Source: Lachnospiraceae bacterium (lineage in GTDB: Bacteria > Bacillota > Clostridia > Lachnospirales > Lachnospiraceae). From it: a DNA stretch of 52,791 nt. Within the stretch, counting starts at the first letter, position 1, and each line of letters opens with the position of its first letter. Below the pieces are notes generated by a model, which was not told the origin of the DNA, did no database searches, and saw only the letters and a program-made list of their open reading frames with translations. Positions 16,890 to 20,999 of the stretch are shown here, one piece after another. The position numbers and the translations under genes were made by a program. The stretch lies in contig JAGCVT010000078.1 of NCBI GenBank assembly GCA_017962225.1, forward strand, positions 1 to 52,791, given 5' to 3'.

Positions 16890-18497
16890 ATGATAAAAAT
16901 AGATAATATTAAAATATCTGCAAAATCGAATATAAATATTAAAGAGTTTGTTTCAAAGCAGTTTGTTTTGAAGTCTGAAATTTATGATTTTGTAATATTA
17001 AAAAAATCCCTTGATGCAAGGGATAAAAACGATATTAAATATGTTTATTCCGTGGCTTTGAAAACGGATGAAAAGTCAGAAAAATATCTTTTAAGAAAGT
17101 ATAAAAACATTTCCGAATATGTTTCAAAACCATATGAAGCTCCTAAAAGAAATTCTGATTGCGAGTATGATATTGTTACAGTCGGAATGGGACCTGCGGG
17201 ATTATTTGCAGCACTTATTTTATCTGAAGCCGGATATAAGCCGGTAATTATAGATAAGGGTAAATGCGTTGAAGAAAGAACAAAGGATGTAGAAAACTTT
17301 TTTGAAGGCGGAAATCTCGATGTTTTTTCAAACGTTCAGTTTGGCGAAGGCGGAGCCGGAACATTTTCGGACGGCAAACTTAATACAGGCATTAAAGATC
17401 CTGCCGGCAGAAAAGAATATGTTTTAAATACATTTGTTAAATACGGCGCTTCTGAAAATATCCTTTATGATTCAAAACCTCATATCGGAACGGATGTACT
17501 CAGAAACGTAATAAAAAACATAAGAGAAGATCTGATTAAAAGAGGTGTTAAATTCTTATTTTCAAAAGAATTTATATCTTTAAATCAGTCTGAAGGAATC
17601 ATAAAAGAAATAACCGTAAAAGATGTTTATTCAAACGAAGAAAGCGTTCTTAAATGCGATAAATTAATTCTTGCAACAGGACATTCTTCAAGAAATACAT
17701 TTGAGTATTTAAAAGATAAACTTTCGATGGAAATCAAGCCTTTTGCAATGGGCTTTCGAGTAATCCACGAACAGTCTTTTATAGACAAAGCTCAGTACGG
17801 TTTTGATTTTGAAAATATATACGAAGGTCTTGAACCTTCACCCTATAAATTAACCCATCAGGGCAAAAATCGCGGTGTATATTCATTCTGCATGTGCCCC
17901 GGCGGATATGTTGTAAATGCCTCAAGCGAAGAAAACAGAATCTGCGTAAACGGAATGAGTGAGTTTAAGAGAGATTCCGGCTATGCCAACAGTGCAATCA
18001 TAGTCCAGATAAACAAAGAAGATCTTGATGATTCGGATGTTTTATCGGGTATGAAGATGCAGAGAGATATTGAGGAAAAAACCTTTAAAGCAGGTAACGG
18101 ATGTATTCCTTTAAGCGAATTAAAATCATTTTTTGAAGATATTAATTTTGAAAATGATATAGAGTTTGTAAATAACTGTATTAATCCTGATAAAGCAATA
18201 AAAGGTAAATATATTTTTACAGACATTACAGATATTTATCCGGATTTCCTCAATAAAGCATTCTGTGAAGCAATGCTTGATTATGATAATATAATTAAAG
18301 GTTTTGCAAGTGTAAATCCTTTACTTGCAGGCGCTGAAACCAGAAGCTCATCACCTGTAAAAATTTTAAGAAATGATACTTTTGAGAGCAATATAAAGGG
18401 TGTTTACCCATGTGGAGAAGGCGCAGGTTATGCAGGCGGAATTGTTTCTGCAGCAATAGATGGTATGAAGGTTGCTGAATCGATTATATTTAATTAA
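16890..18497 (+). CDS. FAD-dependent dehydrogenase of the COG2509 type
   Basis: The 535-residue flavoprotein has a small N-terminal domain of about 95 residues, then an FAD-binding GMGPAGLFAALILSEAG and the characteristic FGEGGAGTFSDGKLNTG sequence. The C-terminal FAD contact PCGEGAGYAGGIVSAA is intact. Substrate and physiological role of this widespread family are not established. No good ribosome-binding site precedes the ATG at 16890; only an AT-rich stretch separates it from the flippase gene. Codon use in the N-terminal third is very A/T-rich (many AAA and ATT). The stop codon is immediately followed by the structured RNA candidate. Confidence 0.88.
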   Translation: MIKIDNIKISAKSNINIKEFVSKQFVLKSEIYDFVILKKSLDARDKNDIKYVYSVALKTDEKSEKYLLRKYKNISEYVSKPYEAPKRNSDCEYDIVTVGMGPAGLFAALILSEAGYKPVIIDKGKCVEERTKDVENFFEGGNLDVFSNVQFGEGGAGTFSDGKLNTGIKDPAGRKEYVLNTFVKYGASENILYDSKPHIGTDVLRNVIKNIREDLIKRGVKFLFSKEFISLNQSEGIIKEITVKDVYSNEESVLKCDKLILATGHSSRNTFEYLKDKLSMEIKPFAMGFRVIHEQSFIDKAQYGFDFENIYEGLEPSPYKLTHQGKNRGVYSFCMCPGGYVVNASSEENRICVNGMSEFKRDSGYANSAIIVQINKEDLDDSDVLSGMKMQRDIEEKTFKAGNGCIPLSELKSFFEDINFENDIEFVNNCINPDKAIKGKYIFTDITDIYPDFLNKAFCEAMLDYDNIIKGFASVNPLLAGAETRSSSPVKILRNDTFESNIKGVYPCGEGAGYAGGIVSAAIDGMKVAESIIFN

Positions 18498-18647
18498 CCG
18501 AGGGGTGCCACGTGATGCTCGAGCGGGTAATTTTTGTCGCCGGTGCTTAATGAGACGAGCACATTGTGCGAAGTCGAATTTAGCATCCGTTGCGTACAAA
18601 AGATTAGCGGAAGCGTGCCCGCGGAGTATTACGTGGTCGCCGCTCGG
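18498..18647 (+). ncRNA. GC-rich structured RNA candidate upstream of proB
   Basis: The segment is 56% G+C by hand count (84 of 150) in an AT-rich neighbourhood and has no convincing reading frame. It folds into nested helices. The outer helix pairs 18498-18502 with 18643-18647, then 18508-18520 with 18624-18636 (13 pairs, two of them GU), then 18523-18527 with 18618-18622. The next helix pairs 18532-18540 with 18592-18601 (one bulge). A third pairs 18542-18547 with 18582-18587. The inner hairpin has 18554-18556 with 18573-18575 and 18559-18562 with 18666-type geometry closed at 18566-18569, with GA/GA-like purines between the two helices. The 3' end lies 23 bp before the proB start and no U-tract follows. 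The raiA-motif RNA family is the first known class I would test, but I cannot confirm it. Confidence 0.7.
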
Positions 18648-18670
18648 TCATAGAGAATATGGAGAAAATC

Positions 18671-19522
18671 ATGAATTTCAGAGAAGCTATTAAAGACAAA
18701 AAAAGAATTGTTGTAAAGATCGGTTCATCGAGTCTTACACATCCCGAGACAGGCGGAATCGATTATACAAGACTTGAAACTTTGGTTAGAGAACTTTGCA
18801 ACATCAGAAATATGGGCAAGGATGTAATACTTGTATCCTCAGGTGCAATTTCTGTAGGCCAGAGAGCTTTACATCTTAAAGATGCAAAGCACAGTATAGC
18901 TGCAAAACAGGCTTGTGCCGCTGTAGGTCAGGCAAGACTTATGATGGTATATCAGAAAATATTTGCTGAATACAATCAGGTCTGCGCTCAGGTTCTTATG
19001 ACCAAGGATACTATTACAAACGATCTTAACAGATTCAATGCACATAATACTTTTGAACAGCTGTTGGAACTTGGAGTTGTCCCAATCGTAAATGAAAACG
19101 ATACAATTTCAACATTCGAAATTAAATTCGGTGATAACGATACGCTTTCAGCCATTGTTGCATCATTAATCGGAGCTGATCTTTTAATTCTTTTATCAGA
19201 TATTGACGGTTTGTTCTCTGATAACCCAAGAACCAATCCCGATGCAGAATTTATCAGTATTGTCGAAAAAATAGATGATAAAATCATTAATATGGGCAAG
19301 TCCGAAACAGGTTCATCCATCGGCACAGGCGGTATGAATACAAAGATTCACGCAGCTCAGATTGTTACCAAATCAGGCGCTGATATGATTATCGCAAACA
19401 GTGATGATATCCATATTTTACACAGAATTATGGACGGAAGAGATTTCGGTACTTTGTTTGTGGCAGATAAAGATGAGAATTTTGAACTTGTTGATTTTGT
19501 AAGCAAGTTAAGCGAAGAATAA
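18671..19522 (+). CDS. proB: Glutamate 5-kinase
   Basis: ProB phosphorylates glutamate in the first step of proline synthesis. I place the start at the ATG at 18671, six bases after GGAG; an upstream in-frame ATG at 18659 has no ribosome site. The protein is then 283 residues and comprises only the amino-acid kinase domain (VVKIGSSSLT at the N terminus, VSSGAISVGQ, NENDTIS, LLSDIDGLF, GTGGMNTKIHAA). The C-terminal PUA domain of the longer E. coli form is absent, as is common in Firmicutes. The gene is directly downstream of the RNA candidate and one base upstream of the proA fusion. Confidence 0.95.
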   Translation: MNFREAIKDKKRIVVKIGSSSLTHPETGGIDYTRLETLVRELCNIRNMGKDVILVSSGAISVGQRALHLKDAKHSIAAKQACAAVGQARLMMVYQKIFAEYNQVCAQVLMTKDTITNDLNRFNAHNTFEQLLELGVVPIVNENDTISTFEIKFGDNDTLSAIVASLIGADLLILLSDIDGLFSDNPRTNPDAEFISIVEKIDDKIINMGKSETGSSIGTGGMNTKIHAAQIVTKSGADMIIANSDDIHILHRIMDGRDFGTLFVADKDENFELVDFVSKLSEE

Positions 19523-19523
19523 A

Positions 19524-20999
19524 ATGGAAATTGAGAAATTAATTAACAGAATAAACGAACTGTATCATAAATCCCAGGACGTGGGGCTTACCGAAGAAGA
19601 GGCTAAAGAGCAGAAGGAATTAAGAGCAGCATATGTTGCGAACATCAGAGCAAATCTTAAATCCCAGCTTGACAGCATCGACATAAAAGAAGCAGACGGA
19701 AGCATCACCAATCTTGGCGAAAAACATGCTGCAGAGAATGAATTTAGAGGTAATGACATGTATCTTGAAACATTAGGTAAAAATGCAAAGAATGCAAAAT
19801 ATACAATCGGTCTTCTTGATGAAAAGACCAGAAATGACGTGCTTTTACAGGTTGCTGATGCACTCGTAAAAGAAAGCGAATACATTATCGCACAGAATAA
19901 AATTGATTATGACAAAGGTGTATCCGAAAACATGAAAGCCGGTCTTTTGGACAGACTTTTATTAACAGAGGCGAGAATTGAAGGCATCAGTGAGGGTATC
20001 CGTCAGGTAGTTGCTCTTGAAGATCCTTTAAATAAGGTTTTGGATGACAAGATTATGGCTAACGGAATGCATATTACCAAAGTCAGTGTTCCTTTAGGAG
20101 TTATCGGAATCATTTACGAATCAAGACCTAATGTAACTGCAGATGCATTTTCACTAACATTCAAATCAGGAAATGTCTGCATTCTTAAGGGCGGTTCAGA
20201 TGCAATCAATTCAAACCTAGCTATTACTAAGGTTATCCGCGATGTTTTAAAGGCTAATAACCTTGATGAGAATGCTATTCAGCTTATTGAAAAGACGGAC
20301 AGAGAAACAGCTACCGAATTCATGAAAATGAATGATTATATCGATGTTTTGATTCCCCGCGGAAGTGCCGGTTTAATCAAAGCAGTTGTTACAAATTCAA
20401 CTATTCCCGTTATTGAAACAGGAAGCGGTAACTGCCATATTTACGTTGATAAAGATGCAGATATCGATATGGCTGTAAATATCATATTTAATGCCAAGAC
20501 ACAGAGAATCGGCGTTTGCAATGCATGCGAATCTCTTGTTGTACATAAAGACATTAGAGAAGCACTTCTTCCTAAGATGGCAGAGAAATTAAAAGAGAAA
20601 AATGTCGAAATCCGCGGCGATAAAGATACAAAAGATATTATCGACTGTGTAGATGCCACAGAAGAAGATTTTGCTAAGGAATATCTTGATTACATCATTT
20701 CCGTTAAGACTGTTGAATCGGTTGAAGAAGCAATTGCTCATATCAACAAATACAACACAGGACATTCTGACTGCATCATCACAGAGAATGATGAGACTGC
20801 AGAAAAATTCTTAAAGGGCGTTGATGCAGCGTGCGTATACAGAAATGTTTCCACCAGATTTACGGACGGCTTCGAGTTCGGTCTCGGTGCTGAAATCGGT
20901 ATTTCGACTCAAAAGCTTCACGCAAGAGGACCTATGGGACTTAATGAGTTAACCTCATACAAATACAAGATAACCGGTAACGGTCAGGTCAGAGGTTAA
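19524..20999 (+). CDS. proA: DUF896 (YnzC-like)-glutamate-5-semialdehyde dehydrogenase fusion
   Basis: ProA reduces glutamyl-5-phosphate to the semialdehyde in proline synthesis. The reading frame encodes 491 residues, about 75 more than a usual ProA. Residues 1-68 match the small DUF896/UPF0291 family of B. subtilis YnzC (RINELYHKS...GLTEEE..EQ..LRAAY and a K.QLDSIDI stretch). ProA proper begins at about residue 79 and includes GVIGIIYESRPNVT, LKGGSDA, PRGSAGLI and the catalytic-cysteine region IGVCNACESLVVH. An internal ATG at 19758 is preceded by AGAGG with 7 bp spacing, so a stand-alone ProA may also be made. The fusion is seen in the sequence; function of the added domain is unknown. Confidence 0.92.
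   Translation: MEIEKLINRINELYHKSQDVGLTEEEAKEQKELRAAYVANIRANLKSQLDSIDIKEADGSITNLGEKHAAENEFRGNDMYLETLGKNAKNAKYTIGLLDEKTRNDVLLQVADALVKESEYIIAQNKIDYDKGVSENMKAGLLDRLLLTEARIEGISEGIRQVVALEDPLNKVLDDKIMANGMHITKVSVPLGVIGIIYESRPNVTADAFSLTFKSGNVCILKGGSDAINSNLAITKVIRDVLKANNLDENAIQLIEKTDRETATEFMKMNDYIDVLIPRGSAGLIKAVVTNSTIPVIETGSGNCHIYVDKDADIDMAVNIIFNAKTQRIGVCNACESLVVHKDIREALLPKMAEKLKEKNVEIRGDKDTKDIIDCVDATEEDFAKEYLDYIISVKTVESVEEAIAHINKYNTGHSDCIITENDETAEKFLKGVDAACVYRNVSTRFTDGFEFGLGAEIGISTQKLHARGPMGLNELTSYKYKITGNGQVRG

What the first reader, a model, noticed from the sequence alone, without database searches (positions are those of the whole stretch)
18498..18647. Highly structured GC-rich RNA candidate between an FAD dehydrogenase gene and proB
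By hand count it has 84 G/C of 150 in an AT-rich genome, no reading frame, and nested helices that use most of the sequence: an outer helix of more than 20 pairs in three blocks (including 18508-18520 with 18624-18636), a second of 9 pairs with one bulge (18532-18540 with 18592-18601), a third of six pairs, and a terminal hairpin with purine-rich GA/GA-like internal loop. This is far beyond chance and unlike a terminator. It sits just upstream of proB with no U-tract, so it may be a cis-acting leader for proline synthesis or a processed RNA. It could be a known class (raiA motif is my first candidate, recalled only vaguely) or a new one.
Basis: partly seen in the sequence, partly recalled or inferred. 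Interest (0 to 1): 0.8.

Follow-up and report, generated by a model that had tools for sequence, protein, structure and literature searches.

The report
Mobile structured hairpin repeat in Lachnospiraceae
The odd hairpin upstream of proB is one copy of an apparently undescribed DNA repeat with an elaborate conserved fold that has spread, sometimes to dozens of copies per genome, through gut bacteria of the Lachnospiraceae and one other group.

Summary
The fold is real: 84 G/C of 150, MFE -82.8 kcal/mol, z -8, + strand favoured. It is probably not a proB leader but one copy of a dispersed repeat. The own genome has 2 copies; congeners have 0 to 57. A covariance model finds it in 154 of 397 sampled genomes of the family, a second model in 5 of 61 of a distant family, at 9 to at least 58 copies. 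Covariation is strong (37 of 49 pairs change on both sides). The FAD-proB site lacks it in sister genomes G003 and G005. Orientation to flanking genes is random (29:29; 21:22). Lachnospiraceae copies lying close together are mostly head-to-head (14 of 17). Arms vary freely yet stay Watson-Crick paired; arms and core seem exchanged separately at orthologous sites. No Rfam match; no partner enzyme identified. Best reading: a non-autonomous ERIC/REP-like mobile palindrome whose folded strand is recognised by an unknown enzyme. My searches found no description in print.

The parts
18497..18648 (+). Whole element copy as folded: outer arms plus conserved core
   Evidence: MFE; CM match 18507-18638, 132.5 bits; absent in G003/G005
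18497..18520 (+). 5' outer arm (P1), variable in sequence, pairs with 18624-18648
   Evidence: pair counts
18624..18648 (+). 3' outer arm (P1)
18523..18529 (+). P2 5' strand (GCGGGTA), pairs with 18616-18622
18532..18547 (+). 5' strands of P3 and of the first part of P4, with the nearly invariant CG(T/C)CGG...CTT
18549..18580 (+). Apical part: A-U helix, tandem G.A (18552-53 with 18576-77), tip hairpin of variable length
18582..18601 (+). 3' strands of P4 and P3; two-base bulge 18590-18591 present throughout A1, one-base bulge 18586 missing in some copies
18607..18614 (+). Side mini-hairpin (here GCGGAAGC); its two pairs are unchanged in all 47 rows of A1
18616..18622 (+). P2 3' strand (TGCCCGC)
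16890..18497 (+). Upstream gene: FAD-dependent oxidoreductase (PF21688); its stop codon abuts the element
18671..19522 (+). Downstream gene proB (amino acid kinase PF00696); start probably 18671, not 18659 as in the mechanical ORF list, because G003 and G005 keep GGAG...ATGAATTTC but not the first ATG
   Evidence: start is inference

Best explanation
The segment is one copy of a family of dispersed, non-autonomous mobile palindromes. Each copy has a conserved ~75-nt core near the apex of a long hairpin, with variable but complementary arms; many copies are head-to-head doublets, and in one genome (G1150) the core is part of a ~590-bp unit with terminal inverted repeats. Shown: dispersal, presence/absence at orthologous sites, structural conservation, random orientation to genes, doublets; no transposase gene was seen in the units read. 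Inferred: the folded single strand (most likely ssDNA, + strand of this window) is bound and moved in trans by an enzyme not yet identified, into intergenic DNA and, at some sites, into the loop of an existing hairpin. Also inferred: the arms are kept complementary partly by templated (palindrome-correcting) replication rather than by RNA-level selection alone. At proB it is probably a passenger in a FAD-proB-proA transcript (co-transcription not tested).
For: Copies: own genome 2, genus 27 of 31 genomes with 1-57, family 154 of 397. At the orthologous FAD-proB junction G003 and G005 have 21-22 bp from stop codon to the GGAG before proB and no element; G000 and G020 have it; by eye it is also missing in the nine further genomes shown. 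L043 site empty in G020, G023, G000, G005. L048 site: element in the loop of a GGGACGGTTCT hairpin that G000 and G005 have without it. Orientation to genes: 29 same, 29 opposite of 84 classified (87 considered); 21 and 22 of 73 classified (107 considered). Close pairs under 1 kb in the 80 named loci: 14 head-to-head, 3 tandem, 0 tail-to-tail; 7 of 7 fetched Falcatimonas (G115) places are head-to-head doublets. Structure. Near-absence of wobble: 12068 pair cells in 260 copies, 88.1% Watson-Crick, 3.6% G.T. Mosaic: L069 core 0.99 to a paralogue in its own genome but 0.64-0.67 to orthologues, arms 0.84 to orthologues and 0.64 to that paralogue; L045/L047 core 0.99, arms 0.62 at the same site. G1150: terminal repeats AAATTCTGATTTGCCGA on both sides in 11 of 15 loci scanned, up to 4 mismatches; 57 matches of the unit or parts of it in that genome.
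Against: No movement was observed. No consistent target-site duplication (by eye: the same dinucleotide in 3 loci, one of them only with a farther right repeat) and no autonomous copy or partner enzyme found. Presence/absence could in part be loss: a tip deletion is seen in L422 and L423. The strong constraint on the core and G.T over A.C (431 to 179, 75 of the latter in one column) would also fit selection on an RNA. One of the five measures, further pair types, does not exceed its shuffles (92 against 89.9; 157 of 500 as high). Of 7 sites compared, 4 were folded at the junction and 2 of these have a clear hairpin, so insertion into loops is not general. In the second family 5 stretches chosen for their pairs gave 3 head-to-head, 3 tail-to-tail and 1 tandem pair (L416-L419, L421), so head-to-head order is not universal. 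The G1150 unit was not found in two congeners.
Confidence: 0.62

Rival explanations
1. A multicopy trans-acting noncoding RNA (or family of RNAs) selected by the cell; copies are genes, not parasites.
For: Very strong covariation, 30 invariant columns in 47 copies, hairpins of Falcatimonas doublets 83/86% identical on average while their spacers are 54%.
Against: Copy number varies 0-57 among species of one genus; patchy in a distant family (5 of 61); arms use all four Watson-Crick pairs almost freely with hardly any wobble, which I would not expect from RNA-level selection alone. Transcription and promoters of the copies were not tested.
Confidence: 0.15
2. A cis-acting element of mRNAs (leader, processing or stabilising hairpin), including a proline-synthesis leader at proB.
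For: In the window it lies between two same-direction genes, 22 nt before the probable proB start, and would be co-transcribed.
Against: Orientation to flanking genes is random; the flanking genes are of many kinds; relatives lack it before proB.
Confidence: 0.07
3. REPs of a RAYT (Y1 tyrosine transposase) system, i.e. ordinary REPINs with unusually long units.
For: Doublets of hairpins, intergenic dispersal; Y1 proteins occur in 17 of 31 genus genomes, among them G001 (57 copies), G013 (23, fragments) and G014 (15, one stop inside).
Against: No Y1 match in G006 (45 copies), G027 (38), G019 (19), G003, G007, G011; matches in element-free G025 and G028, though not in element-free G002 and G026. 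Several of these MAGs are incomplete (G006 85%, G019 74%), so absence is weak.
Confidence: 0.1
4. A plain palindrome maintained only by replication template switching, with no mobility; copies spread by recombination.
For: Strict Watson-Crick covariation in the arms; template switching is reported to create and maintain hairpins (PMC8794818, start of abstract seen).
Against: Dozens of unlinked copies per genome, doublets and a constant left edge of the unit in G1150 need a spreading mechanism.
Confidence: 0.06

Closest known systems
GTAG- and CGTC-tagged REPs (Di Nocera 2013, PMC3733652; abstract and 12 passages read)
   Same: Dispersed, mostly intergenic palindromes, head-to-head dimers favoured, sometimes inside larger palindromes, CGTC type without a known transposase; our P4 also begins CG(T/C)C
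   Different: Those are 20-40 bp (CGTC stems 8-9 bp); the words Firmicutes, Clostrid- and Lachnospir- do not occur in the main text; here a ~130-290 nt fold with conserved bulges, tandem G.A and a side hairpin, and the CG(T/C)C is base-paired
ERIC/IRU 127-bp elements of enterobacteria (recalled; a paper on RU elements, PMC2759123, seen only in a search listing)
   Same: Imperfect palindromes of ~130 bp, intergenic, mobile-looking, no enzyme known to me
   Different: No sequence comparison made here; different phylum; I recall no such covarying core for ERIC
MITEs
   Same: Non-autonomous; G1150 units are ~590 bp and TIR-bounded
   Different: No consistent target-site duplication, no parent transposon found; in the window's genus and in Falcatimonas I saw no separate TIRs
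REPIN/RAYT systems (recalled)
   Same: Doublet of inverted palindromes
   Different: A Y1 gene does not go with the copies across the genus

Membership tests
Rfam families (4227 models, including raiA and hammerheads) | Covariance-model score at or above the family's cut-off | tested here: not met
   0 matches in the window, none on the element at E<=10, 0 in 20 loci holding diverse copies
REP (GTAG/CGTC) | 20-40 bp palindrome with an unpaired GTAG or CGTC foot | tested here: not met
   Units are ~130-290 nt and the CG(T/C)C is paired in the covarying P4; the feet of the outer arms were not searched for tags
REP (GTAG/CGTC) | Head-to-head dimers predominate | tested here: met
   14 of 17 close pairs in the named loci, 0 tail-to-tail; but 3 tail-to-tail among 7 pairs in selected stretches of the second family
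REPIN/RAYT | Y1 (PF01797) transposase in element-bearing genomes | tested here: not met
   17 of 31 genomes; absent in G006, G027, G019, present in G001, G013, G014 and in element-free G025, G028; MAGs incomplete
MITE | Terminal inverted repeats | tested here: inconclusive
   Clear in G1150, 11 of 15 loci; not seen by eye outside the arms in the window's genus or Falcatimonas
MITE | Target-site duplication | tested here: not met
   None consistent, by eye, in the flanks or at the sites
MITE | Related autonomous transposon | tested here: inconclusive
   Pairs with genes between them carry lipoprotein, prepilin-like or panC-like genes, named by eye, no transposase; only a small share of copies inspected
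cis-regulatory leader | Fixed orientation and recurring gene class downstream | tested here: not met
Retroelement moved by a reverse transcriptase | RVT_1 (PF00078) in element-rich genomes | tested here: not met
   5 of 31 genomes (G009, G013, G014, G018, G020); none in G001, G006, G027, G019; MAGs incomplete

The most novel reading that the evidence does not exclude
A new class of mobile element whose unit of selection is an elaborate folded strand: a conserved core that enters the loops of hairpins, including its own older copies, is swapped between standing hairpins, and keeps its arms complementary by templated copying, moved by an unknown (perhaps structure-specific) enzyme.
Probability: 0.2. 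Interest if true: 0.85.

Novelty: new variant of a known kind. Interest (0 to 1): 0.6.

Why it matters
It is a common, apparently undescribed component of genomes of an important gut family, and it could mislead searches for structured RNAs because its covariation is so strong. It offers a test of how far compensatory change in hairpins comes from DNA-level template switching rather than RNA selection: the arms show nearly free Watson-Crick exchange with few G.U steps. If a partner enzyme exists, it would be one that reads a large folded strand.

Tried and rejected
Rfam at curated and permissive thresholds: nothing on the element. Hammerhead likeness (UGAG...CGAA, hammerhead recalled) rejected: the rest of the core is helical, the U-A next to the G.A pairs changes to C-G, and no Rfam hit. 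Phage or plasmid carriage: 0 viral contigs with an exact match to a rather strict core pattern, no blastn match of the window copy in plasmids or phages. Y1 and RT partners. Autonomous copy between paired copies: genes that look like lipoprotein paralogues (L082 twice, L078), a prepilin (L131), panC (L262) and housekeeping genes (L368), no transposase by eye (no family search run on them). Neighbour clustering: the 25 largest clusters printed are mostly orthologous sites with housekeeping genes. Donor for the arms of L047 in G023: none among the 6 other G023 copies compared, best 0.72. Literature: searches gave nothing on such a repeat; PMC8040213 (passages only) describes palindromic candidates, and the passages shown name none in Lachnospiraceae. 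PMC3733652: abstract and passages. Other papers were seen only as listings.

Limits: E-values come from a short calibration. In some searches only about 8-9 candidates per genome were scored, so these counts are lower bounds, and 58 in G1167 is the cap. Alignments A2-A4 were fitted to the model and lean to its structure; A1 was not, but its structure was derived from the same copies. The orientation counts use mechanical ORFs, include some orthologous sites, and share at least five places, so they are given apart. G115 is taken to be Falcatimonas sp. MSJ-15 because a contig length (287878) agrees.

Full report
What is there. MFE is -82.8 kcal/mol, z -8.05 on +, and -60.9, z -5.65 on -; 84 of 150 bases are G/C against 37.7% for the window. 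It lies between the stop codon of an FAD-dependent oxidoreductase gene and proB. Rfam has nothing like it.

It is a repeat. BLASTN finds a second copy in the own genome, C149:3997-4114, and matches in 37 of 99 genomes searched (own included) at E<=1, many of them weak. A MAFFT alignment of 47 copies supports one structure: 91.1% of pair cells are standard pairs (shuffled 73.5%), 37 of 49 pairs have changes on both sides (shuffled 28.0), covariation score 0.492 against 0.191; one of the five measures, further pair types, is no higher than shuffled (92 against 89.9); slid registers fall to 27-46% paired. A covariance model finds it in 27 of 31 genomes of the genus, with 57 copies in G001, 45 in G006, 38 in G027, 2 in the own genome and none in G002, G025, G026, G028. 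It finds 154 of 397 genomes of the family (136 of 334 genera). In the order sample 62 of 392 genomes match, all 62 of the own family. A model from wider copies gives 5 of 398 in the phylum, four of the own family and one, G1100, of another. In that family 5 of 61 genomes in 2 of 30 genera carry it, at 9, 16, 21, 56 and at least 58 copies. The 80 named loci are by their titles mostly Lachnospiraceae MAGs, with Agathobacter, Acetatifactor and Falcatimonas; some bear wider labels and one is titled Bacteroides sp. An exact core pattern has no match in viral contigs, and the window copy none in plasmids or phages.

Anatomy. From outside in: variable arms (P1); P2 (GCGGG/CCCGC in the window's type, GAC/GTC in another); P3, variable; P4 with near-invariant CG(T/C)CGG...CTTA / TAG...CCG(C/T)T(A/G)CG and two bulges, one of them missing in some copies; an A-U helix, tandem G.A, and a tip of variable length; on the 3' side a tiny hairpin inside AGCG(N)(R)AGCG. 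In Falcatimonas (G115) the hairpins have a further outer stem and span about 220-260 nt as printed, and 7 of 7 fetched places are head-to-head doublets with two end types; the hairpin ends are 83% and 86% identical on average, the spacers 54%.

It comes and goes. In G003 and G005 there are 21-22 bp from the FAD stop codon to the GGAG before proB and no element; G000 and G020 have it. Other sites are empty in relatives: L043 in G020, G023, G000 and G005. At L048 the element sits inside a GGGACGGTTCT...AGAACCGTCCC hairpin that G000 and G005 have without it; at L052 three element-free relatives have a hairpin at the junction; proB has a weak one and L043 none. The other three sites were not folded, and their alignments are poor in places. 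Whether single cases are gain or loss is open: tip deletions that leave small hairpins are seen in G1150 (L422, L423).

Orientation. Against flanking genes it is random: of 84 classified copies 29 run with two same-direction neighbours and 29 against, 26 lie between opposed genes (10 of 97 matches dropped, mostly repeats of the same place, and 3 at contig edges). In the named loci 21 and 22, 30 between opposed genes, 4 overlapping long ORFs, 30 at edges, of 107. This argues against a leader or processing role. Close pairs under 1 kb there: 14 head-to-head, 3 tandem, 0 tail-to-tail. In five stretches of G1141 and G1167 chosen for their pairs there are 3 head-to-head, 3 tail-to-tail and 1 tandem, so the rule does not hold for the second family.

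Two odd features. First, in 260 distinct copies (fitted alignments, 12068 pair cells) 88.1% are Watson-Crick, 3.6% G.T, 1.5% A.C (75 of 179 in a single P4 column), 6.9% other. Arm positions use all four Watson-Crick pairs (for example AT48 TA95 GC59 CG44 with 3 G.T and 3 A.C). Such exchange with few wobble steps suggests copying of one arm from the other in DNA; template switching as a maker of hairpins is in print (PMC8794818, start of abstract only). No comparison set of ordinary RNAs was run. Second, arms and core move apart: in G007 the mut-site core is 0.99 identical to a core elsewhere in that genome and 0.64-0.67 to its orthologues, while its arms are 0.84 to orthologues and 0.64 to that paralogue; at the uvrA site G003 and G023 have cores 0.99 and arms 0.62 identical, with the downstream flank 116/121 and the upstream flank 99/131 identical, so recombination near the site may be involved. 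The window's own core is 0.97 identical to mut-site cores of G003 and G023. Site names such as mut, kor and uvrA are my labels from neighbouring proteins read by eye.

Larger units. In G1150 the core is the right part of a ~590-bp repeat with terminal inverted repeats AAATTCTGATTTGCCGA, found on both sides in 11 of 15 loci scanned with up to 4 mismatches; in most comparisons homology starts about 390 nt before the core; the unit or parts of it match 57 places in G1150 and none in two congeners. No consistent target-site duplication is seen.

Who moves it. Unknown. Y1 transposases are found in 17 of 31 genus genomes: in G001, G013 and G014, which have many copies, but not in G006, G027 and G019, which also do; and in G025 and G028, which have none. 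Reverse transcriptases are found in 5 of 31, among them G013 and G014, not G001, G006, G027, G019. Genes between paired copies do not look like transposases. MAG incompleteness weakens these absences.

Verdict. A dispersed mobile palindrome of the REP/ERIC/MITE kind, by its size, core and taxonomic range a new family, with an arm-and-core evolution I cannot fully explain. The proB copy itself is probably ordinary; the family is not.

Noticed in passing
window 19524-20996: The proA-like protein carries an N-terminal DUF896 (PF05979, residues 5-60, E 3.6e-19) before the aldehyde dehydrogenase domain: an apparent fusion.
   Followed up: no
L040, L048, L182, L193: A second, shorter repeat, GGGACGGTTCT...AGAACCGTCCC hairpins, recurs in this genus and may be the REP of the longer Y1 transposases (guess).
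   Followed up: partly
L082 1761-2567 and 11102-11833; L078 1916-2926: Three similar-looking small lipoprotein genes each lie between head-to-head copies of the element in G027 and G006, as if carried.
   Followed up: partly
L038, L051, L057, L068, L070, L422: Remnants of the 3' part of an element follow a complete copy or arm at a short distance.
   Followed up: no
A2-A4, P4 seventh pair: 75 of 255 copies have a C.A mismatch where others have U-A or C-G, and none has U.G.
   Followed up: no
uvrA-mreB site: L045, L047, L064: G023 resembles G005 upstream and G003 downstream of the element, so a recombination break seems to lie at it.
   Followed up: partly
L231: One named record with the element is titled Bacteroides sp. 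MAG; mislabelled, contaminated or transferred.
   Followed up: no
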